Part shown: piece by piece, positions 8,428-27,027 of the stretch
Numbering within the stretch: the stretch's first letter is position 1
Layout: each line of letters opens with the position of its first letter
Origin: Paracoccaceae bacterium
Lineage (GTDB): Bacteria > Pseudomonadota > Alphaproteobacteria > Rhodobacterales > Rhodobacteraceae
Assembly: GCA_014654775.1 (NCBI GenBank)
Contig: JACVZW010000058.1
Location: 62,001 to 126,000, forward strand
Length of the DNA stretch: 64,000 bases
Reading direction: 5' to 3'
Made by a program: the position numbers and the translations under genes
The notes under the pieces: generated by a model
The model's database searches: none
The model's input: the letters and a program-made list of their open reading frames with translations, nothing else
Told to the model about the DNA's origin: nothing

Positions 8428-8500
8428 CCCTTGCGGCAGCGTGCGCTCCGTGCCCACAGTTTGCTGCACAGAATGCGGCACAAAACAGGGCACAGTCGTT
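8428..8500 (-). repeat. Dispersed TGTG-phased repeat, copy 2
   Basis: The second 73-base copy, 44 bases from copy 1 and directly repeated with it. Its right end runs into the stop codon (TAA, 8499-8501) of the histidine phosphatase gene, so it would lie at the 3' end of that operon's mRNA. A 49-base core is identical to copy 4, which sits just after hutC in the same orientation relative to its gene. Confidence 0.85.
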
Positions 8501-9029
8501 ACAGCAGGTTCTCCGCCCAAACGGGGGTAAAGCTGATCACCGACCCGGTCGCCGGACGGTAGTCCCGCCCGTCTCCGATCAGCCCAAACAGCATCCGATT
8601 GGCCCAGTAATGGCCCACGATCACGACCTCTCCCTCGGCCTCACGCGGCAACTCGCGCAGAAAGCCCGCCACCCGCGCCGTGACCTGTGCAAGACTTTCT
8701 CCCCCATCTATGGGGGTTGTGGCATGAGCCTTCCGCAAGCTGAGGGATTGGGTCCCCTTCGGCTTGCCTTCCAGAACGCCGAAGTCGATCTCCATAAGCC
8801 GCGCATCGGTCTTTATGGGCAGGCCCGTCATCCGCGCCAAGGGCGTCGCCGTCTCCACCGCCCGCTGCAGGGGACTTGCCCAGATCCGCCCGATCCGCCG
8901 CCTCGCCAAAACCCGCGCCACCCCCTGCGCCTGCCCCTCCCCCAAGACCGTCAGGGCCAAGTCCCGCCGCCCCACATAGCACTGTCCATTTCCTGCCGTC
9001 TCGCCGTGACGAACCAAATGAATCAACAC
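8499..9029 (-). CDS. Histidine phosphatase family protein
   Basis: A 176-residue phosphoglycerate-mutase-like phosphatase. The catalytic histidine is H8 in VRHGET (residues 6-11). Further family residues are the SPLQRAVETA block near 53-62, EIDFG near 84 and the second histidine in VGHYWANR near 148. It starts with GTG and overlaps the end of the upstream GT4 gene by 7 bases. It is the last gene of a nine-gene coupled operon. Phosphatases of this family remove phosphate from sugar-phosphate intermediates (mycobacterial GpgP) or from cobalamin and nucleotide precursors; here a phosphorylated glycosyl intermediate is the natural guess. The substrate is unknown. Confidence 0.85.
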   Translation of the reverse strand: MLIHLVRHGETAGNGQCYVGRRDLALTVLGEGQAQGVARVLARRRIGRIWASPLQRAVETATPLARMTGLPIKTDARLMEIDFGVLEGKPKGTQSLSLRKAHATTPIDGGESLAQVTARVAGFLRELPREAEGEVVIVGHYWANRMLFGLIGDGRDYRPATGSVISFTPVWAENLL

Positions 9030-10150
9030 CTTAGCACCCGATCATACAGCGCCTCGACCTGCGCCGCCGCGCGTGGCCAACCGAAATCGGCGGCCCGCAG
9101 ACGCCCCGCGGCCACCATTCGCCGCCGCTCGTCCGGCCCTGTCCGGGCGATGGCGGCAGCCAATTCGCTCACCTCCTCCACCCCCACCAGAACCGCCGCG
9201 CCCCCCGCCACCTCCGGGATCGCCCCCGCGCGTGTCGCGACGACCGGGCAGCCCGCCGCCATCGCCTCGACCAGCATCAGCCCGAACCCCTCCCATCGGG
9301 ACGGCGCGACCAGCAGGTCCAGCGCCGCATAGACATTCGCCATGTCCTTGATATGGCCAAGGAAAATGATCCGGCCTTCGGCGCCCGCAGCGGCGATGCG
9401 GGCCTTCAGGCGGGCGGTCAGTTCGGCATCCTCCTCTGCCCCGATCAGCACGAACCGCCCGGAATGCCCCTGCGCCAGCAACTCCAACGCTGCCGCGACG
9501 AACAGGTCCTGCCCCTTCTGCCGACAGATACGCCCCACGCAGCCAATGACCTCGCCCTCCGGCCGCAGACCAAGCGCCAAGCGCGCCGCCGCCTGCGTCC
9601 TCGGTTGGGTCTTCTCAACAGCAATCCCGTTCGGGATCACCGCGATCCCGTCCCGCGGCAGACACAGCCGCGCCGCCACATGTTTCTGCACTGCGCCCGA
9701 CACGGCGACCATCGCATCCGTCCCCGCCGCCATCCGCCGCTCCAGAGCCAATGCCGTAGACCCGGGAAGCCACTTGTCGTCATACTGGTTGTGGTAATGC
9801 GAAACGATCCGCAAGCCATTGGGACGACAAAGAAAACCAGCCAAGCGCCCCTGCAGGTTCGGGCGGAAGGAATGGCTGTGCATGAGGTCGATCCGCTCGG
9901 CCATCAGCCAATCGGCAAGATGCGCCACGCCATCGATCTTGTCGGCGCCCAAGGCGACGTGAACCTCTGCGCCCGCCGCTTCGAACCGCCGACGCAGGTC
10001 GCGGGCGGCGTCCGGTTCCATCGCTGGCTTCAGGCAGTAGACGCGCGGCGCATAGGCCGCCGCGTGACCATGCTGCACAAGGCCGAGCACGGCTTCAGGC
10101 ACTCCGCCCGTGCCGAGCGAATTCAGGATATGCGCCACACGCTTCGTCAT
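9023..10150 (-). CDS. GT4-type glycosyltransferase
   Basis: A 375-residue GT-B fold glycosyltransferase of the retaining GT4 type. The N-terminal glycine-rich turn is NSLGTGGVPE (residues 10-19) and the C-terminal donor-binding segment is EGFGLMLVEAMAAG, with the EX7E pair. It would move a sugar from a nucleotide-sugar donor to an acceptor in the cytoplasm or at the membrane face. The ATG at 10150 is chosen because it overlaps the upstream stop as ATGA; the open frame extends to 10330 but that stretch lies over the neighbouring kinase gene. It is the eighth gene of the operon. Donor and acceptor are unknown. Confidence 0.88.
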   Translation of the reverse strand: MTKRVAHILNSLGTGGVPEAVLGLVQHGHAAAYAPRVYCLKPAMEPDAARDLRRRFEAAGAEVHVALGADKIDGVAHLADWLMAERIDLMHSHSFRPNLQGRLAGFLCRPNGLRIVSHYHNQYDDKWLPGSTALALERRMAAGTDAMVAVSGAVQKHVAARLCLPRDGIAVIPNGIAVEKTQPRTQAAARLALGLRPEGEVIGCVGRICRQKGQDLFVAAALELLAQGHSGRFVLIGAEEDAELTARLKARIAAAGAEGRIIFLGHIKDMANVYAALDLLVAPSRWEGFGLMLVEAMAAGCPVVATRAGAIPEVAGGAAVLVGVEEVSELAAAIARTGPDERRRMVAAGRLRAADFGWPRAAAQVEALYDRVLRC

Positions 10151-11259
10151 GAGGACAGCGCCGCCTCGGCCCCGGTCAGGCCCGCCATGATCCGGCGGGA
10201 CGGGGCCATGCCCTTGCGGATCAAGTGGCGCATCTGCTCCAACTCCGCCTTTGCCCGGGCGTAGGGCAGGTTGGCGGGAAGGGCGGTTAGCGATGAATAT
10301 CCTGCGATAACAGTGGCTTCGGCAGCACATCTGTCCGGCAGACCGGCATCCTGTAGGGCGCAGAGCAGCGTCGCCAGATCACGCGCCGGATCGCCCGCCC
10401 CGGCACGGTCGAAGTCCAAGAGGGTCATCCGCTCTCTGCCGTCGTCTTGATGCAACAAGACCTGCGCCAACGACAGATCGCCATGGCAAAGCGCCACTGC
10501 AGGCGCGCTCTCCCGTGCTAAAGCATCCGCCAGCCCTTGCCAGCGGGATGCCAGACCCGGCATCGCCGCTGCCAGCCAAGGCAAAGGGTCGTCGGGCAGA
10601 TCGGCCGCAGGCGCATCCAAAACCGCGCATCCATGCAGTTGGGCGACCATCTGCCCCAGCGCGGCAAGGCTGCCAGCCGTGGCCGTGCCTGCATCAAGCG
10701 TCGCGCCGGGACATAAGCCGAGGCAAAGGTCATCTCCGTCTGCAATCATCTGGGGCACATCGAAAGGGCGGTCCGCCACGGCTTTCTCGATGCAGAGATG
10801 ACGTAAAGAGGCGCTGGCAAGACGTTCTTTCTTTTTGATTTTTCGGATCAGCCGATCCTCTCCGCTACCAAGCAGCAGCGTCGCGCGGCGGCCCGGAACA
10901 TAGCGCAGGATACGGGTATCCGGCATGTGAAGCAGGTCTGCGAAAACAAGCGTCGGATCGTCGCCAAGGCCAAACCACTGCGCGCCGTCTGGCCTAAAGG
11001 AAACACTGCGCGCCATAAGTCCCGGAGAGGACCGCATCGGCACCTGAACGGTCCAGAGGATGGACTTGATCCGCAACTTGCCATTGCGCAGGCGCGTCTG
11101 AAGATCCGTGGTCACCACAGCCCCGGGAAGAGAGAGAAGCCGCCGCACCTCGGCATCCGCCGCGATCTGGGCATCCGCCTCTGCCAAAAGCGCCGCGCCC
11201 TCGCAATCGCCCAGAAGGGCATAGCGCTGCACCAGGGGAAAGGACTGCGGAAGGCTCAT
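10147..11259 (-). CDS. APH-fold phosphotransferase (first of three in tandem)
   Basis: A 370-residue protein with the aminoglycoside-phosphotransferase/choline-kinase fold. The catalytic loop is CHGDLSLAQ and the metal-binding loop is LLDFDRAG. At the eighth position of the loop, where most APH enzymes have Asn, there is Gln. The N-terminal lobe has a basic patch RKIKKKE. It overlaps its upstream neighbour by 4 bases (ATGA). In a glycosyltransferase operon the likely role is phosphorylating a sugar, aminocyclitol or sugar-lipid. There is no reason to call it an antibiotic-resistance gene. The start at 11259 is set by the coupling. Confidence 0.82.
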   Translation of the reverse strand: MSLPQSFPLVQRYALLGDCEGAALLAEADAQIAADAEVRRLLSLPGAVVTTDLQTRLRNGKLRIKSILWTVQVPMRSSPGLMARSVSFRPDGAQWFGLGDDPTLVFADLLHMPDTRILRYVPGRRATLLLGSGEDRLIRKIKKKERLASASLRHLCIEKAVADRPFDVPQMIADGDDLCLGLCPGATLDAGTATAGSLAALGQMVAQLHGCAVLDAPAADLPDDPLPWLAAAMPGLASRWQGLADALARESAPAVALCHGDLSLAQVLLHQDDGRERMTLLDFDRAGAGDPARDLATLLCALQDAGLPDRCAAEATVIAGYSSLTALPANLPYARAKAELEQMRHLIRKGMAPSRRIMAGLTGAEAALSS

Positions 11260-12416
11260 GACGACAGGACCTTCCGGATGCTTTCGGCAGTGGCGGAACC
11301 GGCATTCTGAGCAAGGAACTTCGCCGCGTGTATCTTCGCAAGCCCTTGGAACCAAAGGGCGTTCGGGCCGGTCGCGGCGCGCAGAACCCGCCGCGCGGAC
11401 AGGACCGATGCCTCAGGAAAGGTTCCCATCACGGGGCCAAGATCAAGCCGTGCATCCAGAAGAGCAAGGTCGAAACCCGGATCGCCCCGCTTCAGGCTTT
11501 CGGTGTCGATCAGGGTAACGCGGCTTGGTTCCACGAAAAGATGGTCTGGCTTCAGATCGGCATGAATCGGTACCTTCCGCAACATGGGCGGAGCGGCCTC
11601 GCAGCCCGCGATGATCCCTTGGGCAAGCGTACCAGCGTTTTGATCCGCTTCGGCGATGAAGGCCGCAGCCCGGCGGGCGGCCCGAAGATAGTCGGCGACC
11701 TCCATCCCGGGAAGGTCGGGCGTATCGCAGGACCAAAGCACCCGCAACGCTTCGTGGCAGCGCGAGACGGCATCCGCAATCACCTCTCTGTCCCCACGCG
11801 CCAGCAGCTCTTCAAGGGTTTCGCCCTTCGCTGCGGCATAGGCGATGATGCCCCGATCGGCGAGACAGCCGGTGACTTCGGGAAGGGCAAGCATACTGCC
11901 CTCGCTCTGCTGCCGCAGGTGGTTCTGCAGGTCGGCATGGGCCTGACTGTCCATCTTGCGCGCCACCTTGACGAAATGGGGCAGCCCAGCATCCGATACC
12001 CAGCGGAATGTGGCCGAAAGGCCGGGCCGGTAACGCACAAGTTGCGGGGCGGCGCGGGCCGACGCGCCGATCAACCTCGGCGCAAGCGCTTCGCTGTCCG
12101 TCAGAAAAGCCGCCAACTCGGGCAGCCGGTGATCCATGGGAAAGACCTCGAAGACCGCCGATCTCTCTGGGTCGACCCGCAGATGCGGGCGGGTTGCCTG
12201 CAAGTGCGACAGTTTCATCGGGCTGAGGAACCAGATCACCCCCTGCTGGCGCCGTCTGCCCGTGCCGAAGGCGACATGCAGCGCCGCGCGCAGCCCGGGA
12301 TGGTGACGCAGGCGCAGCACTTCGACCGGCGCCGCACCGGTGATGCGCGCAAGATCGCCTTCCGAGAGTGTTTGAAGGCCGATCAAGGCGGGATCGTCGG
12401 GGAAGGAGGTTCTCAT
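11256..12416 (-). CDS. APH-fold phosphotransferase (second of three)
   Basis: A 386-residue kinase-like protein. The catalytic loop reads IHADLKPDH and the metal loop LIDTESLKRGDP. The usual Asn of the catalytic loop is His, and DFD is replaced by DTE, so activity is plausible but not certain. The N-terminal lobe includes a HFVKVARK lysine segment resembling an ATP-contact strand. It is coupled by ATGA on both sides. Similarity to its two neighbours is confined to the catalytic motifs, so the three look like old duplicates or separately recruited kinases. The start at 12416 is chosen from the overlap; the open frame extends to 12509 without support. Confidence 0.8.
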   Translation of the reverse strand: MRTSFPDDPALIGLQTLSEGDLARITGAAPVEVLRLRHHPGLRAALHVAFGTGRRRQQGVIWFLSPMKLSHLQATRPHLRVDPERSAVFEVFPMDHRLPELAAFLTDSEALAPRLIGASARAAPQLVRYRPGLSATFRWVSDAGLPHFVKVARKMDSQAHADLQNHLRQQSEGSMLALPEVTGCLADRGIIAYAAAKGETLEELLARGDREVIADAVSRCHEALRVLWSCDTPDLPGMEVADYLRAARRAAAFIAEADQNAGTLAQGIIAGCEAAPPMLRKVPIHADLKPDHLFVEPSRVTLIDTESLKRGDPGFDLALLDARLDLGPVMGTFPEASVLSARRVLRAATGPNALWFQGLAKIHAAKFLAQNAGSATAESIRKVLSS

Positions 12417-13594
12417 GCCTCGACCTCCAGCAGGGCTGAAAGATGGGCGCGCGGCTCCGCGCTGAAGGCCCAGATCATCACAAGCCGCAGCCGGGCGGCC
12501 CGCCGCCAAACCGCGATGCGGGCCAGCGGGATATGCGGGAAATTCCGTTCTGCAGCAGTGATATAGGCGGCGAAGTTGCGGCCTTCGCGCAATCCGGCAA
12601 GATCAAGATGGGCTTGCAGATTGCCCAGATCCAGTGCCGGATCGCCCCGCGACAGCGTGTCGAAATCCAAAAGCCCTGCCTGCCCGCGAAACAGAAGGAT
12701 TTGACCTTCGTGCAAGTCACGATGGCAGGTCACGGGGGCCATGGGCGCAAGGGCGCGCAGGTCGTGGCAAAGCGACACAAGCTTGGGCCGCAGGACGGTG
12801 CCCAGATCGGGGAAGTAGGTCTGGACACGTTTCTGCCATTGCGCAAGCAGGGCGATCTCGTCCTCGACTGTCCAGATCGGCGCATCGGTCGCGGTGCTCT
12901 GCACTGCAGATAGCGCCTTCGCTGCCGCCTCGATGTCTGCAAAACCGCGTAGACCCTGCAACCGCAACGCCCTGCCGGGCAGGGCGGAGTAAAGCGCAAG
13001 GCCCAGCGACCGGTCGGTTCCCATGGGTTTGGGCAGACGCAGGTCGGTCCTGCCTTCCACAGCCTGCCAGAGCGCCAAGTGGCGGGTCATGGCCGCCTGT
13101 CCTGCGCTTGCCGTGGGCGATCGGAGACGGGCAAAGACCGTCCCGCCGCCATGGCGGATGCGCAGCACTGCCCGGCGACCAAGGCGATGGGCCGCAAGGT
13201 CGATGCGGAACGGTCCCTTGAGGCCGAGTGCCGAGAGGGTCTCTTCGGCCAGCGCAAGATCCGTCAAGAGCCGCAGGCCCGGCAGCTTTGCATCCCGTCC
13301 GGGTTGACGAAAAAGCAGGCCAGAGGCCGCATCCCAATGCAGCGCGGTCGCTTGACCGATCCGCGCCAGACGTTCGGCTTCGGCCATCACCCGTTCTGCC
13401 GGGGTCGAACCTATCCACTCGGCGATCCAAGGCTTGCCGTCGATATCGATCTGGGCATGCGGTGCCCGCCCGGAGGGGAAATGCATCCGGCCAAGTCGGA
13501 CAGGGCCAAGCGCGGGCAAATGACCGTCCACCAAAGCCGTGATCAGGGCAGTCGGCGGTAATGTCGGGGTCAGGTCGGGCATATGGCGGGTCAT
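12413..13594 (-). CDS. APH-fold phosphotransferase (third of three)
   Basis: A 393-residue APH-like kinase. The catalytic loop is CHRDLHEGQ and the metal loop LLDFDTLSRGDP, with Gln in place of Asn as in the first kinase. The N-terminal lobe (about 1-200) is long and carries RIRHGGG. It overlaps the ABC exporter gene upstream and the second kinase downstream by 4 bases each. Placement directly after the exporter suggests that phosphorylated intermediates are made before or during export of the product; this is inference. Confidence 0.82.
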   Translation of the reverse strand: MTRHMPDLTPTLPPTALITALVDGHLPALGPVRLGRMHFPSGRAPHAQIDIDGKPWIAEWIGSTPAERVMAEAERLARIGQATALHWDAASGLLFRQPGRDAKLPGLRLLTDLALAEETLSALGLKGPFRIDLAAHRLGRRAVLRIRHGGGTVFARLRSPTASAGQAAMTRHLALWQAVEGRTDLRLPKPMGTDRSLGLALYSALPGRALRLQGLRGFADIEAAAKALSAVQSTATDAPIWTVEDEIALLAQWQKRVQTYFPDLGTVLRPKLVSLCHDLRALAPMAPVTCHRDLHEGQILLFRGQAGLLDFDTLSRGDPALDLGNLQAHLDLAGLREGRNFAAYITAAERNFPHIPLARIAVWRRAARLRLVMIWAFSAEPRAHLSALLEVEA

Positions 13595-15360
13595 GCCTTG
13601 CGCTCCAGCACCAGGGGGGGATAGCCGTCCTCTTCGAAGCGGCGATCGGTCAGGCGGACGATGCGGTCGGCCATGCTCAGGGTGAGGTCGTCATGCGCGA
13701 TCAGAAGCGTCGTGCGATCGCGGCTGATCATTTTCAGCGTCTGGACCAGTTCCTCGGCCGTGGTGCGGTCAAGTCCGGTCAGCGGTTCGTCCAGGATGAG
13801 GATTGGTGCATCCCGCAGCAAGGCGCGCGCGATGGCGATGCGCTGGCGCTGCCCGCCCGACAGCGTTTCGCCACGTTCGCCCAGAACCGTGTCATAGCCC
13901 AGTGGCATGCGGCGGATGAACCGGTCAGCACCCGCCGCACGGGCAGCGGCAGCGATCTCGTCATCGCTGGCATCAAGACGGCCATAGGCGATGTTGTCGC
14001 GGATCGTGGCGGCGAAGAGCGGCGAGTCCTGCAGGACCACCGCGATCTGCTCGCGCAGCGAGTCGAGCGTGACGCTGCGGATATCGGTCCCATCGATCAG
14101 GATGCGCCCCGATTGCGGTTCATAGAACCGCATAAGGAGCTTTGCGACCGAGGATTTTCCCATCCCGCTCTGCCCGACCAGTGCCACCGTCTCCCCCGCC
14201 CGCAGGGTGAGCGTGGCGTTCTGCAGGACCGGGTTGCCACCGGGATAGGCGAAGGTCACGTCGATGAAGCTGATCCAGCGACGCAGGTAGGAGGCTTTGC
14301 GTGCATTCGGACGGTCGGCGATTTCGGGGTGCAGGTCCAACACTTCAAGCAACCGCTCGCCGCTGGCCGTGGCCTTGGCGACGCGGGCGGACATGCTGCT
14401 CATCCGGCGGATCGGCTTGTGCAGGGTGGTGATATAGGCTGTGAAGACCAAAAGGTCGCCCGGGCTGATAGCCCCGGCCTGCACCCGGGTCACGCCATAC
14501 CACATCACGAGGCAGGTCCCGGCGGCGAGGGCGACCTGTACCAGCCTGTCCATTTCCGCGGAAATCCGTGTGGCCACGACCCCTGCTTCTGCAGAGGACA
14601 GGTTCTGCTCGGAAAAGCGGGCCTCTTCATGGGCTTCGTTGGCAAACCCCTTGACGAGCGAAATGCCCGAGATGCCTTCTGTCATGACAACGGCGATGCG
14701 CCCTTCGCCCCGCCGCTGGTGCCGTGCGGCATCCTTGATGCGGCCGCCATAGCGATGCGTCAGGAAGACCAGCGCCGGCAGGATGGCAAGGGCGGCGATG
14801 GTCATCCGCCAATCCATCAGCGCCATGATGAGGATCGTGGCCAGCAACACAAGGCTGCGCGCAGCAAACAGGATGCCCGCCTCGATCAGCAGGTCGCGCA
14901 TCATCCGCACGTCTCCGGTCAGGCGCGAGACGATATCGGCGGTCGACACGCTGTCATGGAAGGAATGCGACAGCCGCTGGACATGGCGGTACAGTTCCAG
15001 CCGGATGTCCGCGACGACCCGCTGGCCGACGCCCGCTATCATCGTGGACTGAACATAGCCTGCCAGTCCGCCAAGGATCGCAATCGCTAGGATCGCGGCG
15101 CAGCAGACCCACAGCAGGGCCTCGCCTGTTCCGACCCATGCCAGAACCGAAGTCATCACAGGGTCCGGGACAGCCTGCGGGATGAGAAGGCCGTCGAAGA
15201 TGACCTTGATGGGCCATGGGCGGATGACCTCTGCAAGGGCGGCCAAGGTCATGGCTGCGAAACCGATCAAGAGTTTCCCGCGATAGGGGTAGGCATGCGG
15301 CGCGAGGCGGCGCAGCAGTCGCCAGATGGTTGTGGGCTGAAGGCGGCGGGGCTGTGTCAT
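13591..15360 (-). CDS. ABC exporter, fused membrane and ATPase domains (MsbA/lipid-A-export-like)
   Basis: A 589-residue half-transporter that would dimerise in the inner membrane. The type-IV transmembrane domain covers about residues 1-330. The ATPase domain has Walker A GQSGMGKS (396-403), signature LSGGQ (500-504) and Walker B ILILDE (520-525). Exporters of this shape move lipids, lipid-linked sugars, peptides or drugs. Lying among glycosyltransferases and kinases with 4-base overlaps on both sides, it most likely flips or exports the glycosylated product. No peptidase or RTX-type partner is present, so peptide export is less likely. Confidence 0.9.
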   Translation of the reverse strand: MTQPRRLQPTTIWRLLRRLAPHAYPYRGKLLIGFAAMTLAALAEVIRPWPIKVIFDGLLIPQAVPDPVMTSVLAWVGTGEALLWVCCAAILAIAILGGLAGYVQSTMIAGVGQRVVADIRLELYRHVQRLSHSFHDSVSTADIVSRLTGDVRMMRDLLIEAGILFAARSLVLLATILIMALMDWRMTIAALAILPALVFLTHRYGGRIKDAARHQRRGEGRIAVVMTEGISGISLVKGFANEAHEEARFSEQNLSSAEAGVVATRISAEMDRLVQVALAAGTCLVMWYGVTRVQAGAISPGDLLVFTAYITTLHKPIRRMSSMSARVAKATASGERLLEVLDLHPEIADRPNARKASYLRRWISFIDVTFAYPGGNPVLQNATLTLRAGETVALVGQSGMGKSSVAKLLMRFYEPQSGRILIDGTDIRSVTLDSLREQIAVVLQDSPLFAATIRDNIAYGRLDASDDEIAAAARAAGADRFIRRMPLGYDTVLGERGETLSGGQRQRIAIARALLRDAPILILDEPLTGLDRTTAEELVQTLKMISRDRTTLLIAHDDLTLSMADRIVRLTDRRFEEDGYPPLVLERKA

Positions 15361-16526
15361 GCGGCTCTCGCCCTCGGGAAAAGATCAACGATGCGGCGGG
15401 CATTCTGCCGCCAGTCATGAAGCCCTGCCTGCAGGGCCGCCCGCTTTCGAAGGCTGGCAGCCAAGGCAGGATCGGTGGCGATCCGTCGCAAGGCGTCGGC
15501 CAGCGCGTCTGCATCCCCCGGCGGGATCAGAAGGCCGCTGCCTGTGGGCCCGAGCAGTTCTGCCGTCTGCCCGATCCGGCTGGCCACGATGGCGCGGCCC
15601 ATGGCGAGATATTCGAAAAGCTTGAGGGGCGAGAAATAGTGATTGGCCGTGGCGGGATAGGGGGCCACGGCAGCATCCATCCGCGCGATCAACGCGGGCA
15701 GATGGTGGTGCGGCACCCATCCCGTGATCGTCACCGATCCGGCCAGACCAAGGCGCGCGGCCTGTTCGAAAAGCGCGCCCCGTTCCGGACCATCGCCTAC
15801 GATCAGAAGATGCGCGGGCAGGTTTGGCCGTAGCCGGGCAAGAGCCTCAACCAGAAGGTCCGTGCCATGCCAGGCCTTCAGTGACCCGGTGAAGCCGATG
15901 GTAAAGGCCGCGTCGGGCAGGCCCGGAACAGAAGCTGCAGGAATGCCGGGATGGAAGGTTGAACCATCGACCGCGTTGCCGATGACGTGGATACGCTCGC
16001 TCGGCGCGCCCCGGGATTGGACATAGCCCGCAACTTCACGGGACACGACCGCCAGCGCATCGGCGCCGCAAAACACCTCGGCCTCGATCTGCCGCGCCTC
16101 TTGTTGAAGCACGAATTTTCGGAATGCGGCCTGTTCCTCGACAAGGGGCGCATTCACCTCGATGACAGTTGGCACACCAAGGCTGCGGCCCGCCCTCACC
16201 CCGGCCGCCGACCAGAGTCCATATCGTTCGTAGATCATGTCGAAGGGGCGAAGCTGATGCAGCGCCTCCAGCCGGGACTGGAGCGCTTCGGCGAGGGCGA
16301 GAAGGCGGCGCTCCTTCGCCTCGCGCCCTTCGACGGGGGGGAAGTCCGGCCCGATCGCGGTGATCGGGAAATCGGCTGGACCATCGCCTGCTTCGGCGCA
16401 GAGCACCTCCACCTCATGACCTTCGGCGCGGAAGGCCTTGATCATGGCGCGGACATGCACCGATCCGCCCTTTTGGCCAAAGACGGGAACGCCACCATCG
16501 GCGCAGAGATAGGCGATGCGCATCAT
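15357..16526 (-). CDS. GT4-type glycosyltransferase
   Basis: A 389-residue GT-B glycosyltransferase. Residues 15-24 (FGQKGGSVHV) form the N-terminal glycine loop typical of GT4 enzymes that bind a lipid or polymer acceptor. IGFTGSLKAWHG near 210 begins the donor domain, and SPLKLFEYLAMGRAIVAS near 295 holds the donor-site glutamate. It is coupled (ATGA) to a second GT4 gene upstream and to the exporter downstream. It is distinct from its neighbour and probably adds a different residue to the same glycan. Confidence 0.88.
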   Translation of the reverse strand: MMRIAYLCADGGVPVFGQKGGSVHVRAMIKAFRAEGHEVEVLCAEAGDGPADFPITAIGPDFPPVEGREAKERRLLALAEALQSRLEALHQLRPFDMIYERYGLWSAAGVRAGRSLGVPTVIEVNAPLVEEQAAFRKFVLQQEARQIEAEVFCGADALAVVSREVAGYVQSRGAPSERIHVIGNAVDGSTFHPGIPAASVPGLPDAAFTIGFTGSLKAWHGTDLLVEALARLRPNLPAHLLIVGDGPERGALFEQAARLGLAGSVTITGWVPHHHLPALIARMDAAVAPYPATANHYFSPLKLFEYLAMGRAIVASRIGQTAELLGPTGSGLLIPPGDADALADALRRIATDPALAASLRKRAALQAGLHDWRQNARRIVDLFPRARAA

Positions 16527-17737
16527 GCGGCCCCCCGGGCAAGTCGATCACTGGCATCCAAGAAGAGGGCCGCAAGCGTTGCGCTGCTGGTTTTCAGGTC
16601 GAACAGGGCCTCGGCCCTTTGTCGCCCGCTTCGGCCCATCCGAAGCGCGCGTTCCGGATCATCGATCAAGCGTTGCAGGGCTGCGGCCAGCCCGGACGGA
16701 TCACCGGGCGGGACGAGCAGACCCGTTTCTTCTGCGGCGACGATCTCAGGCCCGCCGGTGACCGTGGTCGTCACGACGGGCAGCCCCTTGGCCATCGCCT
16801 CAAGCAGCACGGTCGGCAATCCGTCTCGGTCACCGTCAGGCGTCACGATGCAGGGCAGGGTTACGAGGGACGCCTCATCCAGCGCGGCGGCCAGCCTCTC
16901 CTGCGGCATGGGCCCCATGAGCTGGACCTGTCCGTCCAGACCCAGCGCTATGATCTGCCCGGCGAGCTGCGCCCGCAGCGGGCCGTCGCCAATAATCCGG
17001 CAATCGACCGTCCTGCCACCTGCCGCAAGCTTGGCGCAGGCCTCAATCAGGTCGGCGAAGCCTTTCTTCTCGACAAGACGGCCGATGGCAAGGATGCGTC
17101 CCGGCACGCGGCGCGTCGGATCGGTGGGCTGAAAGGCCGCAAGATCGATCCCGTTGTAGACCCGGTGGATGCGCTCGGCGGCCTCGGGGCACAGCGTCTG
17201 GAGATGCCTCAGGTTGAAGTCCGACACGGTGACAGTGAAGTCTGCGGCCCGCAGCTTGGCCTGCCGTTTCGCGGCATCCGTCTCCGGGTCGATGTAATGA
17301 TGATAGATGTCGCGGGCATGGGCGGTCATCGAAAAGGTCAGACCGGCGCGGCGGGCCGCCAGAAGGGCGACGGTCGCCGCATCCGAAGCGAAATGCGCAT
17401 GCAGGTGGCGAAGCCCGCGCGCACGTGCCGCCTGCGCAACATGATCGGCCTTGGCGATCAGGCGCGCCGCAGCTGTGGCCCCGGTGCCCGCGAACAGGGC
17501 CGCATCGCCCGTCTCGGGCAGCGCGGCCGAGACCTGCGTATCGGCCAGCCGGGTCACCCGCGCCCTGAGATCGGCAAGGCGCGCGTGGCGGGGTTCATCC
17601 GGCGGATCCAGCAGGGAGAAGACCTCGACCGTGATGCCAAGGGCTTCCAGCGCGAGTAGTTCGTTCAGAATGAAGGTTTCCGAAAAACGCGGAAAGCGCT
17701 TCACGACATAGCCGATGCGGAGCGATTGATCAGCCAT
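16523..17737 (-). CDS. GT4-type glycosyltransferase
   Basis: A 404-residue GT4 enzyme. The N-terminus has FPRFSETFILNELLALE (residues 14-30), characteristic of exopolysaccharide GT4 transferases. The donor site is EAMAKGLPVV with an E-x7-E pair. The ATG at 17737 overlaps the end of the receiver-glycosyltransferase gene by 8 bases and is preferred to the longer frame starting at 17797. It is the second gene of the operon. Donor and acceptor are unknown. Confidence 0.87.
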   Translation of the reverse strand: MADQSLRIGYVVKRFPRFSETFILNELLALEALGITVEVFSLLDPPDEPRHARLADLRARVTRLADTQVSAALPETGDAALFAGTGATAAARLIAKADHVAQAARARGLRHLHAHFASDAATVALLAARRAGLTFSMTAHARDIYHHYIDPETDAAKRQAKLRAADFTVTVSDFNLRHLQTLCPEAAERIHRVYNGIDLAAFQPTDPTRRVPGRILAIGRLVEKKGFADLIEACAKLAAGGRTVDCRIIGDGPLRAQLAGQIIALGLDGQVQLMGPMPQERLAAALDEASLVTLPCIVTPDGDRDGLPTVLLEAMAKGLPVVTTTVTGGPEIVAAEETGLLVPPGDPSGLAAALQRLIDDPERALRMGRSGRQRAEALFDLKTSSATLAALFLDASDRLARGAA

Positions 17738-19316
17738 GGGACACCTGCTGCAAGAGGGGCTGACCGTCCGAGCTTTTGGTCCCAAGGCAGGCGGCAATAT
17801 GTGCCGCCGCCCGCGCAGCGCCGTCGAAATCGAGCGGCACGCGGGCGGAAACGACCGGTCCTGTCGCCGCCGCTCCGGAGAGATGCAGCGAGAGCGCCTC
17901 TGGCGTCAGGTCCGGTCTTTCGATCACCTGCGCAAGCCCGAGGCTGCGAAGACGTTCTGCCCGGAGTCGTTGTTCGCTGGACGGCCCGACGCGGGGAACG
18001 ACCAATGCGGGAACGCCGATGGCGAGCGCTTCCGTCACCGAATTGTACCCGCCCATGGTGACGAAGAGATCGCTTGCCGCAAGCCGGGCCGCCATGTCGC
18101 TGACCTGATCATGGAAGGTGACATCGAGCTGTGCCGCGCGCAAATGAAGCCTTTCGCGCAGTTCGGTATCCATCAGCGGCCCTCCGACGAGTTGCAGGTC
18201 CGGGCGATGGCGGCGGGGCAGCAGGGCCTGCGCCTCTAGCGCCGTGGCCAAAAGCAGGAAAGCATCCCGCCCGCCGCCACCCGAAACCAGCACGCGGCGC
18301 GGTCCCTTTTCCCGACGTATCGCGCGCCGCGCCCGTATGGTGGTGACGGCGCCGCAATATGTCACCGCGCCCGGGCGCAGACGATCCAGCCCGTAGGCCC
18401 GACTGGACGGATAGAAGTCGGCGTTTCCATAGACGAGAATGTCATCATAGAGGGTGGAGATCACGGTGTCAGTCCCGGCTTCGGCCCAGCGGGTACAGGT
18501 CCGCTCTGGGTCGTCGAGAATATCCCTCAGGCCGAGGATGGTGCGGGTGCCATGGGCTTCGCGCAGGCGCCGCAGCGGGGCGACGAGTTCGTTCCAGACG
18601 CCGGTCGGCTCATGATCGACAAGCAGGATGTCGGGCTTGAAGGTTTCGGCCACGCGTTCAAGGATACCTGCGCGCAAGGCACGCGCAGTGTCGGCATCGA
18701 TCCGCAGGCTGCCGGATTGCCACCGATCGCGTCCGAGTTTGGCCAGCGATGGCAGCTTGATGTAATCGATCCCCGGCTTGGGCGCAAAGATCATGCCCGC
18801 CGGGCAGCCGACCAGCATCAGCACGGAAAGGCCGGGCACACGGGCCACCAGTTCTTCGGCAATCGCGCTGTTGCGGCGCATGTGACCAAGGCCGATCGTG
18901 TCATGCGAATACATCATCACCGAAGGACCCGGTCTGCGCTGCTGCGGTGGCAGGCTTTCTGCCAGCAGCGCGGCGACCAGTTCGCACAGCCGTGCCATCG
19001 CAAAGGGCTTTGCGAGGAAGGCCGCGACAGCGATCTCTTCGGCGCGCAGGCGGTTGGCGGTGGTGTCTTGACCGCTCATCACGATGACCGGGCAATCCTG
19101 CAGCCTTTCGGCATGCGCACAAAGCACATCGATGCCGTCCCCGTCGCCAAGCGAGATGTCGGCGATGACAAGATCCGGTTTCAGGCCCGAGGCCAGTATC
19201 CGACTGGCCTCGGCGGCGGATGGGGCATGGGTGACGGTATGTCCGGCACGGCCCAACGCGATTCCGATGTTGCGGGCGATGATGGGCTCGTCTTCGATCA
19301 GAAGGATGTCCGGCAT
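17730..19316 (-). CDS. Response-regulator receiver domain fused to a COG4671/MurG-like glycosyltransferase
   Basis: A 528-residue fusion. Residues 1-120 are a complete receiver domain: acidic pocket D9/E10, phospho-acceptor D53 in IADISLGDGDG, switch Ser81 (VIVMSGQD) and Lys103 (LAKPF). After a short linker, residues 130-528 form a GT-B transferase related to MurG and COG4671: SHDTIGLGHMRR (137-148), SGGGG (345-349) and GGYNSVTEAL (422-431). It is the first gene of the nine-gene operon and is divergent from a histidine kinase gene 208 bases away. I infer that phosphorylation of D53 switches the transferase. Neither half looks truncated. A receiver joined to a sugar transferase is unusual; most receivers regulate DNA-binding or signalling outputs. 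Confidence 0.85.
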   Translation of the reverse strand: MPDILLIEDEPIIARNIGIALGRAGHTVTHAPSAAEASRILASGLKPDLVIADISLGDGDGIDVLCAHAERLQDCPVIVMSGQDTTANRLRAEEIAVAAFLAKPFAMARLCELVAALLAESLPPQQRRPGPSVMMYSHDTIGLGHMRRNSAIAEELVARVPGLSVLMLVGCPAGMIFAPKPGIDYIKLPSLAKLGRDRWQSGSLRIDADTARALRAGILERVAETFKPDILLVDHEPTGVWNELVAPLRRLREAHGTRTILGLRDILDDPERTCTRWAEAGTDTVISTLYDDILVYGNADFYPSSRAYGLDRLRPGAVTYCGAVTTIRARRAIRREKGPRRVLVSGGGGRDAFLLLATALEAQALLPRRHRPDLQLVGGPLMDTELRERLHLRAAQLDVTFHDQVSDMAARLAASDLFVTMGGYNSVTEALAIGVPALVVPRVGPSSEQRLRAERLRSLGLAQVIERPDLTPEALSLHLSGAAATGPVVSARVPLDFDGAARAAAHIAACLGTKSSDGQPLLQQVSHG

Positions 19317-19524
19317 TCCTGCCCCCTCGGTGCAATGGTCCTGTCGGGTATCCTAGGCCAGCCATTGAGGGCCCGCGCCCGGCGTCCGGGGCGGTTTTGG
19401 GGCAAATCGCGGGGGCAATTTGGGGGAAATGGCCCAGAACGACCCGCCCTGGGCCCCCAGCATGATTTGCGCCGCGCACGAGTTGTGGTTTTGTGGTGAC
19501 AACCCGGAACCAGCGGAGGATGGC
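19317..19524. promoter_or_regulatory. Divergent control region with G-run cluster
   Basis: A 208-base non-coding gap between the receiver-glycosyltransferase operon (minus) and the histidine kinase gene (plus), so it must hold both promoters. No clear -35/-10 pair was recognised. Four G-runs on the plus strand (19388-19391, 19399-19402, 19411-19415, 19422-19426) are close to a G-quadruplex pattern, with the middle loop one base long for the strict rule. A ribosome site AGCGGAGGA lies just before the kinase ATG. Confidence 0.45.
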
Positions 19525-20904
19525 ATGAGCCTTCTCATCGGCGCGACCAGCCTGCGCGATTCACCGCATCACCTGCGGATGCTGACGATCTTCTTCGTCA
19601 TCAGTTTCATCGCGATTTTCTCGACGGCTGCGATCCTGTCGACGGCGCTGTCGCGCTACATCATCCATCAAATGATGATGCGCGATGCAATGGTCTCGAC
19701 CGAGTTCCTGAACTCGATCGTCCATGTCGAACAGGCGGCACCCTATTTCCTTGGCATCACTGACGCGCCCACGCCGCCCGATGTGCAGGAGTTCGTCAGC
19801 CATGTCTCGCGATTGCCGGACGTGTTCCGTGCCAATGTCTATGCCTTTGACGGACATATTCTGTGGTCAAGCGATCCGCAGATGGTGGGCAAGAAGTTCG
19901 ACGACAACGACGAACTGGCCCAGGCAATGGAAGGGCGGCTGGAACCGGAACTGAGCGTGGTGAGCCGGGGCGAAAAGGAAGAACATGTCGGTTTCCCCGA
20001 TGGGGTGGACCGGTTCATCGAATACTATATCCCCATCCGGCGCGAGATCACGGGCGAAGTCGTGGGCGCGGTAGAGGTCTACAAGGCGCCCGAGAACCTG
20101 CTCACCTCGATGACGGAAATCCGCAAGCTGGCCTGGCTGGGTGCCCTTGCTGCCGGTTGCGCCCTGTTCGGCGGGCTGGCGGTGGTCGTGGCCTATGCCA
20201 GCCGTGTGCTGCAGCGGCAGGAGGCGCGGATCGTCGAGACGGAGCGTCTTGCCGTGGTGGGCGAGATGGCCTCGGCGGTTGCGCATGGATTGCGCAATCC
20301 GCTGGCGGCGATCCGGTCCTGCGCGGAGTTGACGATGGAGGATGACATCCCCGATCACAGCCGCGACGCGATCCGCGACATCACCAATCAGGTGGACCGT
20401 CTGGAAAGCTGGATCCGTGCCTTCCTCATCCGCAGCCGGAACGACCCCGGCAGCCTGTCGGATCAGGCGCAGATCGATCAGGTCATCCAGCGCTGTCTGG
20501 AGAATTTCGAGGCCCAGATGCGCAAGCGCGGAATCGTTTCGGTCATGTCTGGGGGACGGGGCCATCCCATCGCATTGGCACAGCCGTCGGAACTGGAGCA
20601 GGTGCTAAACTCCATCATCTCGAACAGTATCGAGGCGATGCATAAGGGTGGCAAGCTGGGGATCGGCTGGTCCACCCGGCCGGATGGCAAGATTGCCATC
20701 ACCATCACCGATACCGGACCGGGCATCCCGCCCGACATGGTGGGGCGGCTGTTCAAGCCGTTCGAAACGGGCAAGGCGGCGGGGCTGGGTGTCGGTCTTG
20801 CCCTCGGCCGCCGGATCGTGGAGCGGATGGGCGGATCGTTGGACCTCAAGAATCGGCCGATCGAAGGCGTCGAAGTCACCTTGATCCTCCCGGGGCATGC
20901 CTGA
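19525..20904 (+). CDS. Membrane sensor histidine kinase (NtrB/HisKA-type)
   Basis: A 459-residue inner-membrane kinase. Two hydrophobic spans (about 19-41 and 203-227) enclose a periplasmic sensor region of about 160 residues. The dimerisation helix carries H254 in AVAHGLRNPLAA. The catalytic domain has an N-box (ISNSIEAM, N367), a G1 box DTGPG (396-400) and a G2 box GLGVGLALG. The ATG at 19525 follows GGAGGA by 4 bases. It overlaps the regulator gene downstream, so these are cognate partners. It may also phosphorylate the receiver-glycosyltransferase encoded divergently. The signal sensed is unknown; the periplasmic part resembles no sensor I can name. Confidence 0.9.
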   Translation: MSLLIGATSLRDSPHHLRMLTIFFVISFIAIFSTAAILSTALSRYIIHQMMMRDAMVSTEFLNSIVHVEQAAPYFLGITDAPTPPDVQEFVSHVSRLPDVFRANVYAFDGHILWSSDPQMVGKKFDDNDELAQAMEGRLEPELSVVSRGEKEEHVGFPDGVDRFIEYYIPIRREITGEVVGAVEVYKAPENLLTSMTEIRKLAWLGALAAGCALFGGLAVVVAYASRVLQRQEARIVETERLAVVGEMASAVAHGLRNPLAAIRSCAELTMEDDIPDHSRDAIRDITNQVDRLESWIRAFLIRSRNDPGSLSDQAQIDQVIQRCLENFEAQMRKRGIVSVMSGGRGHPIALAQPSELEQVLNSIISNSIEAMHKGGKLGIGWSTRPDGKIAITITDTGPGIPPDMVGRLFKPFETGKAAGLGVGLALGRRIVERMGGSLDLKNRPIEGVEVTLILPGHA

Positions 20905-22129
20905 GATGACCGATATCCTGATCATCGAGGACGAGGATGTTCTTGCGCGCTCCATCGTGGGGTTTCTGGAACGGCGCGGGTTTTCGGCAGGTTTCGCGGT
21001 CGACGGGCAAAGCGCACTTGCTCTGTTCCGCCGGGAGCGGCCAAGGCTTGTGATCCTTGACGTCCGTTTGGGGCGCGAGAATGGACTTGATCTTTTGCCC
21101 ACACTGCGCGGCATCAATCCCGAGGCGCAGATCGTGGTCATGACGGGCCATGGCGACGTTGGCATCGCCGTCGAGGCGATGAAGCGCGGCGCGCGGGATT
21201 TTCTGATGAAGCCCGCACCCCTTGCGATGATCGCCAGCATGGCCGCGGACCTTATCCTTCAGGATAGTGCGCGACCGCATGATGTTTCGGGGGTGGATCG
21301 GATCATCGGGCGGTCTTCGTCAGCCATCGACCTGCGTGCGACGCTGAGGCGGCTGGCTTCGGCGGCAGAAGGGCAGCAACCACCCGGTGTTCTGCTGACG
21401 GGGCCGCGCGGCAGCGGCAAGACCCTTGCGGCGCGCGCCCTATACGAAACCGTGCAGGACGCACGCGGGAAGATGGAATGCATCGATTGTTCGATCGGTG
21501 AAGGGCAGATCGAGACCGCCCTCGCCTCCGGTGCACGTGCACTGATCCTGCGCTATGTCGATGCCTTGGGGGAAGAAGATCAGGGGCGTCTGGTCCGCGC
21601 CCTTGATGCCGACCCCGGGCTTTGGATCATCGCGACGACGGCGCGCAATCTCGGGGCTCTGGAACGCAAGGGGGAGTTTCGGCCCGATCTGCTTTACCGA
21701 ATTCAGGTCGGCTGGGTCGATGTGCCGCCGCTGGTGGATCACAGTTCGGACATCCTGCCGCTGGCCGAGGAATTCGCGCGGCGCACCGCTTTCCGCTTTT
21801 CACGCAGCCGCCCGCGCCTGACCGGAGAGGCGCGGGTAAAGCTGTTGCAGCACGACTGGCCGGGCAATGTGGCCGAGTTGGAAAACTGCGTCGAACGCGC
21901 CGTGATCCAGTCGAGCGATGGGATGATCAGCGCCGGTGACATCAAGATCATCGATCAGACAGAACGGGACGAGGCGGCGGTCCCGAACCTGACCAAGATG
22001 GAGGAAACCGCACTGGTCAAGGCCTTGCGCGTGACCGGAGGAAACGTGTCACGCGCGGCCGAGATGCTGGGCATCTCACGTGACACGTTGCGCTACCGCA
22101 TGGAAAAATTCGGAATTTCGCGGCGTTAG
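20897..22129 (+). CDS. NtrC-family response regulator with degenerate AAA+ domain
   Basis: A 410-residue regulator. The receiver domain (1-120) has D12/E13, phospho-acceptor D55 and K105. The central AAA+ domain keeps Walker A GPRGSGKT (169-176) and WPGNVAELEN (321-330). However, the segment that should contain GAFTGA (about 200-215) does not, and the Walker B strand reads ALILRYVDAL with no DE pair. A Fis-type helix-turn-helix closes the protein (365-410). Without GAFTGA it cannot contact sigma-54 in the usual way, so it probably works with another sigma factor, as Rhodobacter NtrC does. The start at 20897 overlaps the kinase stop; an ATG at 20906 is equally possible. Confidence 0.88.
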   Translation: MPEMTDILIIEDEDVLARSIVGFLERRGFSAGFAVDGQSALALFRRERPRLVILDVRLGRENGLDLLPTLRGINPEAQIVVMTGHGDVGIAVEAMKRGARDFLMKPAPLAMIASMAADLILQDSARPHDVSGVDRIIGRSSSAIDLRATLRRLASAAEGQQPPGVLLTGPRGSGKTLAARALYETVQDARGKMECIDCSIGEGQIETALASGARALILRYVDALGEEDQGRLVRALDADPGLWIIATTARNLGALERKGEFRPDLLYRIQVGWVDVPPLVDHSSDILPLAEEFARRTAFRFSRSRPRLTGEARVKLLQHDWPGNVAELENCVERAVIQSSDGMISAGDIKIIDQTERDEAAVPNLTKMEETALVKALRVTGGNVSRAAEMLGISRDTLRYRMEKFGISRR

Positions 22130-22836
22130 GCAATGTCTGCGATTTCATCCAGCAAAGATGGATCGCGACGTTCGGCCCGTTTCAAGGCGCGTCTGATGAT
22201 GGCGAGCGTCATGTAGGGGGCAAGGATGGCGTGGTCAGTCCGGCCTCCGAGGCCGGTCCATGCCGCAACGAGGCTGGCGCGGGCGTCGTTCAGCCGATCT
22301 GCGAGGGGACGGGGGTCGCGAAGGGACTGGGAGGCCAACCAGGCGATTAGGTTGCCGAGATCGGCCTCGACCGGGCCGAGGGCGAGGTCGTCGAGATCGA
22401 GAAGCCATGATCGACCCTCTGAGTCGCGGATCACCTGGCCCGGATGGAAATCCCCGTGGCAGATGGTGTCCATCGTGGCGGGGAGACGCGTGACCTGCTG
22501 CTGCGCGAGACGGGCGACCGTGGCCGGGGCGAGGGCGAGGCGCGGGCGGATGCGTAGAAGAGGATCATGCTGTGGTAGGCCGAGAGAGGGCAGGCGCAAC
22601 CGGTTGAGGCCAAGAAGGGGCGAAAGCAGATCAGGAAGCCCTGCGATCAGGTCTGGTCCTGTGGTTCCGGTTATCCGGGGAAAGCGGAGTGTCCGGTCAT
22701 CTTCGCGGGTCGGGATCGGGGTGGCGATTCCGGCGGCCTGCAAGGCCTCTGCCCTGTTTAGGGCGGCCGTGGCTATTGTGGCGGCGGAAAAGCGTTTCAC
22801 AACAACGCTTTCCGAGAAGGTCACCTGCGCTGTCAT
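22126..22836 (-). CDS. Short APH-fold phosphotransferase
   Basis: A 236-residue kinase-like protein, shorter than the three in the main operon because the N-terminal lobe is reduced. The catalytic loop is CHGDFHPGQ and the metal loop LLDLDDLALGP. As in two of the others, Gln stands in the position usually held by Asn. Its stop overlaps the end of the convergent regulator gene by 4 bases, and its ATG overlaps the stop of the upstream glycosyltransferase gene. It probably belongs to the same pathway as the operon on the far side of the kinase/regulator pair. Confidence 0.8.
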   Translation of the reverse strand: MTAQVTFSESVVVKRFSAATIATAALNRAEALQAAGIATPIPTREDDRTLRFPRITGTTGPDLIAGLPDLLSPLLGLNRLRLPSLGLPQHDPLLRIRPRLALAPATVARLAQQQVTRLPATMDTICHGDFHPGQVIRDSEGRSWLLDLDDLALGPVEADLGNLIAWLASQSLRDPRPLADRLNDARASLVAAWTGLGGRTDHAILAPYMTLAIIRRALKRAERRDPSLLDEIADIA

Positions 22837-23819
22837 CCGACGGACAGGATGGCTTCGGCGGCGCGGTCTTCGCCGCTGGGGCCAAGGGCGACAGGGGGGC
22901 GCCGAAGGCGCAGGTGCAGGACCCGTGCAAGCCAGTCGCCATTTTTATTTTCCTCGTCAATGGCTTGGGGAAGGGACAGGCGCCGGGACCAGAGGCGGAT
23001 GCGGGCATCTTGATCGTCGATAGAGCGGGGGATGGCGATCAGGTGGGTAGGGGTGGAGGTGGTGGCGAGTTCGAGGACCGAGTTGTAACCCGCCGTGGAG
23101 ATCACCGCATCCGCCGTGTGAAAGAGCCGGTTCAAGCCGCCGCCGGGGTCGATTATGTGATCGATTCCAGGGACTTGCCCGAAATTCTTCGCACGCGGGC
23201 CGATGGCCTGCACGGCATCGAAGGGAATGGGGCATAGCGCGCGCAGGCGCGACAAAATATTCCCGATCTGGTCGTAAAGGTCGGCGGAAGTCTGGGCCGT
23301 TCCACCCCCACCCGTGGCGATGAGGAGTTGCGGGCGACTGCGCGCAGCAGCTGCCGCCATATCCGCATTCCGATAAATCCATCCAACAGAAACAATACCT
23401 TGGTTGCTTCCCTCTGGCATTTCGGGCCGCCAGTGATCGGCCGGATTCGCGATCAGGACACGTGTCCAAGGGTGCTGGGCGGGTTGGAAATGGGGCAGGT
23501 GGGCATCGGGCGTTTCACGCAATATGAGAATACGCGGCGTCGCGGCGGCCTCCAGTTCCGGCAGGTTCATCGTATCGAGAACGGCGGTGAAAGGCCCTGC
23601 GCCCGCCGCTAAGGGCATCGCGGCACGGTCTGCCACAGTGATGGTGTCGAAGGCAGAAAGGTCTTCGGGATCAAGGCCTTGCGGGGCGGCATTCGTCACC
23701 AGACGCAGGCTGCGCCCGGGCGCGGCGCGGCGCAGGGCGCGGGCGATGGTGGCGCTGCGGCGCAGGTGGCCGAGGCCGGATTTCGACGTGGCGAAAAAGA
23801 TGATGGCGTTGGTGGACAC
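22833..23819 (-). CDS. COG4671/MurG-like glycosyltransferase, stand-alone
   Basis: A 328-residue GT-B protein related to the transferase half of the receiver fusion: both carry GLGHxRRxxxIAxxL near the N-terminus, here SGLGHLRRSATIARAL at residues 12-27, and a C-terminal GYNSVLEL (compare GGYNSVTEAL). The GTG at 23819 is chosen because the family pattern begins six residues later. The frame stays open to an ATG at 23930, which would add 37 residues encoded mostly by the dispersed repeat and rich in Cys; I regard that as non-coding. It is coupled to the short APH kinase. Confidence 0.78.
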   Translation of the reverse strand: MSTNAIIFFATSKSGLGHLRRSATIARALRRAAPGRSLRLVTNAAPQGLDPEDLSAFDTITVADRAAMPLAAGAGPFTAVLDTMNLPELEAAATPRILILRETPDAHLPHFQPAQHPWTRVLIANPADHWRPEMPEGSNQGIVSVGWIYRNADMAAAAARSRPQLLIATGGGGTAQTSADLYDQIGNILSRLRALCPIPFDAVQAIGPRAKNFGQVPGIDHIIDPGGGLNRLFHTADAVISTAGYNSVLELATTSTPTHLIAIPRSIDDQDARIRLWSRRLSLPQAIDEENKNGDWLARVLHLRLRRPPVALGPSGEDRAAEAILSVG

Positions 23820-24827: not shown

Positions 24828-24840
24828 CCTCTGGCCCCCC

Positions 24841-25764: not shown

Positions 25765-25767
25765 GGC

Positions 25768-27007: not shown

Positions 27008-27027
27008 CGTGAGGCGTGATCCTGCGA

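What the first reader, a model, noticed from the sequence alone, without database searches (positions are those of the whole stretch)
8499..23819. Candidate undescribed system: nine coupled genes for glycan synthesis, phosphorylation and export beside their own two-component pair
Nine minus-strand genes (19316 to 8499) overlap by 4-8 bases: receiver-glycosyltransferase, GT4, GT4, ABC exporter, three APH-fold kinases, GT4, histidine phosphatase. A histidine kinase and NtrC-like regulator lie divergently, then a fourth APH-like kinase and a second COG4671-like transferase. No wzx/wzy, priming transferase or O-antigen sugar genes are present. I know no described pathway with this make-up.
Basis: partly seen in the sequence, partly recalled or inferred. 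Interest (0 to 1): 0.8.

Follow-up and report, generated by a model that had tools for sequence, protein, structure and literature searches.

The report
Sensor-linked sugar-chain building and export operon
A block of thirteen bacterial genes that is gained or lost as a unit and probably builds, phosphorylates and exports an unknown sugar chain, with an unusual enzyme that has a signalling switch fused to it.

Summary
Nine intact minus-strand genes overlap by 8,4,4,4,4,4,4,7 bases and have the stated families. Beyond them lie a divergent histidine kinase/NtrC-like pair, a fourth kinase and a second COG4671-like transferase. The block behaves as one module: four congeneric sites lack it and one keeps only the sensor pair. 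Its core (COG4671b, APH4, RecGT, GT4a, GT4b) is in 9 of 9 receiver-fusion loci examined, from Rhodobacteraceae, Pelagibius, Denitrobaculum, a Kiloniellaceae MAG and a Rhizobiaceae-group MAG. Similar clusters with kinases, MsbA-like ABC, AlgE-type porin and heparinase-like lyase occur in Manganitrophus and two sampled genomes of other classes. A widespread alphaproteobacterial relative, without kinases, maps to the Sinorhizobium meliloti PPP surface-polysaccharide genes, so the pathway is not wholly undescribed. Most likely it makes an exported, phosphorylated glycan or glycolipid; product, kinase substrate and carrier are unknown. The strangest feature is a receiver domain fused to the first transferase, which may let the sensor control synthesis directly. 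Verdict: real, conserved, uncharacterised; a new variant of a known kind.

The parts
17730..19316 (-). RecGT: N-terminal receiver domain (about residues 1-120) fused to a COG4671-like GT-B glycosyltransferase; first gene of the nine-gene run
16523..17737 (-). GT4a, family 4 glycosyltransferase (EpsE/WcaL-like, below NCBIfam cut-offs); overlaps RecGT by 8 bases
15357..16526 (-). GT4b, family 4 glycosyltransferase
13591..15360 (-). ABC exporter, membrane + ATPase in one chain, MsbA/PglK-like but below those equivalog cut-offs; Walker A, signature and Walker B present
12413..13594 (-). APH1, APH-fold kinase with an extra N-terminal part
11256..12416 (-). APH2, APH-fold kinase
10147..11259 (-). 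APH3, APH-fold kinase, also above Pfam's cut-off for the LPS (Kdo/WaaP) kinase family; accessory
9023..10150 (-). GT4c, family 4 glycosyltransferase; accessory
8499..9029 (-). Histidine phosphatase (branch 1, CobC-like, below equivalog cut-off); accessory in the receiver-fusion loci, frequent in PPP-type clusters
19317..19524 (.). Divergent promoter region with two TTGGGGSAAATNGC sites (19397, 19420), the only two exact matches in this genome to a pattern that was itself derived from these sites
19525..20904 (+). Sensor histidine kinase (HisKA + HATPase_c)
20906..22129 (+). NtrC-type response regulator; the AAA+ segment that reads GAFTDA in the Manganitrophus and G305 regulators is missing here, so it is probably sigma-54 independent
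22126..22836 (-). APH4, short APH-like kinase (236 aa)
22833..23819 (-). COG4671b, second COG4671-like GT-B glycosyltransferase; overlaps APH4 by 4 bases

Best explanation
A patchily held module for making and exporting a phosphorylated surface (or periplasmic) glycan, probably lipid-linked. Up to five GT-B transferases (two COG4671-like, two or three GT4) build a chain in the cytoplasm, APH-fold kinases with an extra N-terminal part phosphorylate its sugars, and an MsbA/PglK-like ABC protein moves it across the inner membrane. In Pelagibius, Denitrobaculum, a Kiloniellaceae MAG, Manganitrophus and two other sampled genomes an AlgE-type barrel would carry it through the outer membrane; no such protein was found in this genus. 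The sensor kinase would act on transcription through the NtrC-like regulator at the divergent promoter and, directly, on the receiver domain of the first transferase. Shown: gene content, overlaps, conservation, presence or absence as a unit, intact motifs, homology to the S. meliloti PPP genes. Inferred: product, order of steps, kinase substrate, promoter control, receiver as a target of the sensor.
For: Families and motifs; overlaps; core in 9 of 9 receiver-fusion loci, and ABC, APH1 and APH2 in 7 of 7 whose contigs reach that far; clades of both COG4671 transferases with the same main groups; sites without the block. Relatives: AlgE-like porin in L035 and L037 (Pfam, 17, 18), in L036 = G733 and in Manganitrophus, G161 and G305; heparinase II/III-like lyase in the last three (36; Pfam for Manganitrophus, 82); DUF2334 in Manganitrophus and G161; UDP-glucose dehydrogenase in G161 and G305. 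Kinase profile A5 hits 2 of 398 Pseudomonadota genomes, G161 and G305, each with a copy in such a cluster, with the limits told in the full report. Related PPP genes are needed for an S. meliloti surface polysaccharide. Receiver active-site residues are intact in 6 of the 7 receiver-bearing rows of A1; the seventh (L039) has Arg for the Lys and no sensor pair was found in its locus.
Against: No nucleotide-sugar, priming or lipid-carrier gene was found in the block, and PF13372 was found in 0 of 19 genus genomes, so an outer-membrane route is not shown here. Receiver-less relatives lack these kinases: no APH hit in 12 of 12 PPP-type stretches nor in 9 of 9 further receiver-less loci, so phosphorylation is not a general feature of the pathway. 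The phosphatase is found in kinase-free clusters, so it need not act on kinase products. The L039 case is one MAG contig and its missing sensor pair may be an assembly matter. The APH1 model is weak (pLDDT 64; no PDB match at E<=0.001). A similar sensor pair stands without these genes in G016 and G010 (108).
Confidence: 0.55

Rival explanations
1. The kinases are precursor enzymes: they make sugar phosphates (for example from hexosamine) that feed nucleotide-sugar synthesis, and the exported glycan itself is not phosphorylated.
For: G161's cluster has a protein with an N-terminal nicotinate-nucleotide-adenylyltransferase-like part (E 1.2e-5, below cut-off) and a C-terminal APH kinase. APH1 has weak matches to glucosamine kinase (NCBIfam E 4.2e-7, below cut-off; PDB 6hwj E 0.0052). 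The Foldseek rows for the weak APH1 model, none at E<=0.001, begin with homoserine kinase, an aminoglycoside-type kinase, N-acetylhexosamine 1-kinase and LicA choline kinase.
Against: No nucleotidyltransferase was found in the window's block; three to four kinases seem many for one precursor; APH3 matches the LPS kinase family above Pfam's cut-off.
Confidence: 0.3
2. A small secreted oligosaccharide natural product, with kinases masking it inside the cell, an ABC exporter and a phosphatase that unmasks it (streptomycin-like logic, recalled).
For: APH folds, glycosyltransferases, exporter and phosphatase together; the COG4671b model is closest to natural-product transferases in the PDB.
Against: No aminocyclitol or deoxysugar gene was reported among the scanned genes; the phosphatase was not tested for a secretion signal; relatives carry AlgE-type porins, a heparinase-like lyase and UDP-glucose dehydrogenase, which fit a polymer.
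Confidence: 0.08
3. A chance neighbourhood of common families (GT4, ABC, APH) without joint function.
For: Each family is common by itself.
Against: Core content kept in 9 of 9 loci at 30-97% protein identity, overlapping genes, block present or absent as a unit.
Confidence: 0.03

Closest known systems
S. meliloti PPP (phazolicin-protecting polysaccharide) genes smb21252-smb21271
   Same: COG4671-like transferase, GT4a-like transferase, second COG4671-like transferase and an ABC exporter together; mutants in smb21252 and smb21265 are phazolicin-sensitive (PMC10128002, passages). That smb21265 is the COG4671a gene is my inference, counting back from the LacI gene SM_b21272 (PMC11387232, one passage; gene order).
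   Different: No receiver fusion, no APH hit, no NtrC-type pair in the annotated stretch; a longer, distant ABC protein; added nucleotide-sugar dehydrogenase, polysaccharide lyase, deacetylase and Dpp-like importer. RecGT is 35.1% identical to the S. meliloti protein over residues 133-465.
Unnamed AlgE/heparinase/APH clusters of a Candidatus Manganitrophus plasmid, G161 and G305
   Same: COG4671a and b, GT4a-like genes, homologous kinases, MsbA-like ABC; clear HK + NtrC-like pair in Manganitrophus and G305.
   Different: No receiver on the transferase; they add AlgE porin and a heparinase II/III-like lyase, and some DUF2334 and UDP-glucose dehydrogenase. G161 showed only a weak HK hit. My searches found no paper on them.
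REC-GT2 fusion MTH_548 of Methanobacteriaceae (PMC5847659, one passage)
   Same: Receiver domain fused to a glycosyltransferase.
   Different: Archaeal and cellulose-synthase-like (PF13641), not COG4671-like.
MsbA / PglK glycolipid flippases
   Same: Single-chain ABC exporter with membrane and ATPase domains.
   Different: Below both NCBIfam equivalog cut-offs (399.5 vs 602; 158.7 vs 1000).

Membership tests
PPP-type polysaccharide cluster | COG4671a, GT4a, COG4671b and ABC exporter together | tested here: met
PPP-type polysaccharide cluster | UDP-glucose dehydrogenase, deacetylase, long ABC and Dpp-like importer beside it | tested here: not met
   searches report neither of the first two in the scanned genes; the ABC is 589 aa; the adjacent SBP/PotA importer is a genus-wide neighbour, 16 of 19 genomes
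PPP-type polysaccharide cluster | COG4671a falls in the PPP clade | tested here: not met
   RecGT proteins form their own clade, support 1.0
Wzx/Wzy-dependent polysaccharide | flippase, polymerase, priming transferase | tested here: not met
   none reported among the proteins; the rest of the genome was not searched
XrtA/PEP-CTERM polysaccharide system | PrsK, PrsR and GT equivalogs above NCBIfam cut-offs | tested here: not met
   HK 89 vs 300, regulator 176.6 vs 502.6, GT4b 135.8 vs 442.05 bits
MsbA or PglK exporter | equivalog cut-off | tested here: not met
APH-fold kinases | Pfam APH above cut-off with HxD-type catalytic loop and following D-x-D/E motif | tested here: met
Aminoglycoside-resistance phosphotransferases | NCBIfam resistance model above cut-off | tested here: not met
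   APH1-3 scanned: best is 24.9 vs 325 bits for APH3; APH4 not scanned against NCBIfam
Response regulators with enzymatic output | receiver phosphorylated by a kinase and altering the enzyme | not testable with these tools
   residues intact; activity needs experiment

The most novel reading that the evidence does not exclude
The histidine kinase has two targets in one divergent operon pair: a transcription factor and the first glycosyltransferase itself, so that phosphotransfer to the fused receiver switches glycan synthesis on or off at once, and the glycan is multiply phosphorylated by a kinase subfamily tied to such clusters. It would be a bacterial GT-B enzyme under direct two-component control.
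Probability: 0.3. Interest if true: 0.7.

Novelty: new variant of a known kind. Interest (0 to 1): 0.5.

Why it matters
It ties an unstudied group of kinases and a receiver-fused glycosyltransferase to a patchy but wide family of glycan export clusters, part of which (S. meliloti PPP) already has a mutant phenotype but, in the paper seen, no known structure. It makes direct enzyme-level control of glycan synthesis by a sensor kinase testable in vitro.

Tried and rejected
Rejected: the importer at 23988-28278 as part of the system (its SBP is in 16 of 19 genus genomes, and it borders the sites without the block). Rejected: S. meliloti msbA2 (SMb21188-21191) as the described relative: a fragment in SMb21188 lies at 938 kb of pSymB, the ABC gene of the COG4671 cluster at 842-844 kb. 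Rejected: membership of Wzx/Wzy, XrtA/PEP-CTERM and resistance-kinase families (membership table).

Led nowhere or against me: paper searches found no paper; others found 1, 7, 3, 2 and 3, of which I read passages of some. PF13372 in the genus: 0 of 19. The promoter motif: with one mismatch the counts against the reversed control are 13 vs 5 (G000), 13 vs 4 (G009), 22 vs 8 (G002), 11 vs 4 (G018) and 12 vs 10 (G017); G009's only exact match, and one of G002's two, lie elsewhere in those genomes. I made no regulon analysis. Foldseek with the APH1 model gave no match at E<=0.001.

My errors: the APH3 and perm1 queries were out of frame; searches use correct frames and replace them. The gene caller was trained on window genes and misses genes in other loci.
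Full report
What is there. The window lies in a 4.52-Mb genome, contig C58 62001-126000. The best named match to its RecGT is Tabrizicola sp. TH137, 87%, so it is taken as a Tabrizicola-like member of the Rhodobacterales (for the genus). On the other strand are a sensor kinase and an NtrC-type regulator; beyond them a short APH-like protein and a second COG4671-like transferase overlap by 4 bases. The second transferase is confirmed by hhalign to the first (prob. 98, E 1.7e-13) and by its model (pLDDT 84.5), whose best PDB matches are GT-B natural-product transferases.

It is one module. Left out: L038, a 3.1-kb fragment, and L040, a receiver-only hit. COG4671b, APH4, RecGT, GT4a and GT4b are in 9 of 9; HK and regulator in 8 of 9 (not L039); ABC, APH1 and APH2 in 7 of 7 (L034 and L039 end before them; APH2 is 25-30% identical in L035-L037); APH3, GT4c and phosphatase in 3 of 7. 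In a tree of 66 transferase sequences each of the two COG4671 proteins of this group forms its own clade (support 1.0) with the same main groups; some supports inside are weak, and the two trees differ on whether G009 or G002 is nearest the window. In the genus, 4 of 19 genomes have the full-length fusion; not all 19 are complete.

Where it sits. Seven importer sites of congeners were fetched. In G005, G006, G007 and G018 (contig C10) the importer permease is followed by flanking genes of the window with no gene of the block between; the gap is 304-310 bases in three, and 1,225 bases in G006. G018 holds its own cluster on another contig. In the three with the short gap, and in G017, the gene at 6592-8241 is missing too; G006 has it without the block. 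G017 has only the kinase and regulator there, 79% and 70% identical, and looks like a remnant. G003 did not show the left flank, and the G014 stretch ended too early and was not analysed. The importer belongs to the site: its binding protein is in 16 of 19 genus genomes.

Relatives with more parts. L035, L036 (=G733) and L037 add an AlgE-like outer-membrane porin (PF13372 in L035 and L037; L036 by tblastn). A Candidatus Manganitrophus plasmid (L063) and genomes G161 and G305, of other classes of the phylum, carry COG4671a and b, GT4a-like genes, APH kinases, an MsbA-like ABC protein, a heparinase II/III-like lyase and an AlgE-like porin. G161 and G305 also have UDP-glucose dehydrogenase; DUF2334 was seen in Manganitrophus and G161. 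A clear kinase-regulator pair is adjacent in Manganitrophus and G305; in G161 only a weak HK hit was seen. The A5 kinases and the APH1 family align over nearly their whole length, N-terminal part included (prob. 98.6, E 7.9e-16).

Kinase profile counts and their limits. A5 hits 2 of 398 sampled Pseudomonadota genomes at E<=1e-15, G161 and G305, each with at least one copy in the cluster; G161 has another copy elsewhere, not examined. A5 contains the G161 protein, so that hit is partly by construction, and A5 did not find the window. APH1 profile A2 found only the window, 1 of 398. These searches scored only the best three or four first-look candidates per genome, so misses are possible.

The common alphaproteobacterial relative. 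Profile A1 hits 131 of 385 class genomes at E<=1e-30; among the listed matches only those of G000 and G733 span the receiver. Of 21 stretches annotated (ten genomes and two Sinorhizobium plasmids) have a PPP-type make-up: COG4671a, GT4 and COG4671b, mostly with a further GT4, phosphatase (9 of 12), deacetylase-like gene, long ABC protein and Dpp-like importer; none shows an APH hit. Three (Manganitrophus, G161, G305) and G733 have kinases; G392 and G064 are intermediate (COG4671a-GT4a-GT4b-ABC); G085, G509 and an Agrobacterium plasmid show little or no cluster in the stretch seen. Nine further receiver-less loci have no APH or AlgE hit either. The S. meliloti copy appears to be the PPP genes: Travin et al. 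(PMC10128002; [quoted passage not shown] The assignment of smb21265 to COG4671a is mine, from gene order and one anchor.

Control. The receiver of RecGT has E8-D9-E10, D53, S81 and K103; 6 of the 7 receiver-bearing rows of A1 keep this pattern (S or T at 81). The seventh, L039, has E-Q-D and Arg for the Lys, and no HK or regulator was found in its locus. That is one case, and the locus begins 5.5 kb into its contig. The regulator lacks the AAA+ segment that reads GAFTDA in Manganitrophus and G305, so sigma-54 is unlikely; this rests on the known role of that loop (recalled). Two copies of TTGGGGSAAATNGC lie between RecGT and HK, with exact or one-mismatch copies at the same place in G009, G002, G018 and G017. 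The pattern was made from these sites, and G009 and G002 also have exact matches elsewhere, so this is weak evidence. Receiver-glycosyltransferase fusions have a precedent in Methanobacteriaceae with a cellulose-synthase-like domain (PMC5847659, one passage).

How it most likely works. See Best explanation: cytoplasmic assembly, phosphorylation, ABC export, outer-membrane passage by AlgE in some hosts and by an unknown route here (PF13372 in 0 of 19 genus genomes). That the wider family may make uronate- and hexosamine-containing chains is suggested by UDP-glucose dehydrogenase, heparinase-like lyase and deacetylase-like genes in relatives, but none of these is in the window's block. The kinases could instead activate sugar precursors; the nucleotidyltransferase-kinase fusion in G161 speaks for this. 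The phosphatase also occurs in kinase-free clusters, which argues against a simple kinase-phosphatase cycle.

Verdict. A real, conserved, uncharacterised module; a new variant of glycan synthesis/export clusters rather than a new kind. Its most interesting element is the receiver-fused transferase.

Noticed in passing
28469-34804: A separate run conserved in G009 and G002: GT90-like, GT2-like, an unknown, GT61-like and a sulfatase with RTX repeats.
   Followed up: partly
6592-8241 (-): A 549-aa protein with no Pfam match that borders the module; present in G009, G002 and, without the cluster, in G006 (65%), but not seen at the sites of G005, G007, G018 (C10) and G017.
   Followed up: partly
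L124:7112-8722: Fusion of a nicotinate-nucleotide-adenylyltransferase-like domain to an APH kinase inside the G161 glycan cluster.
   Followed up: partly
L157:9155-11746 and L158:7712-10321: Kinase-regulator pairs 52-53% identical to the window's, with no gene of this cluster beside them; their other neighbours were not identified.
   Followed up: partly
L063 and records CP114557.1, CP114562.1, CP114554.1: Four Candidatus Manganitrophus plasmid records carry an APH kinase of this family, two places each.
   Followed up: no
L064:12052-13263: A receiver-less COG4671a gene on an Agrobacterium pusense plasmid with no other hit to the cluster's families within 12 kb.
   Followed up: no
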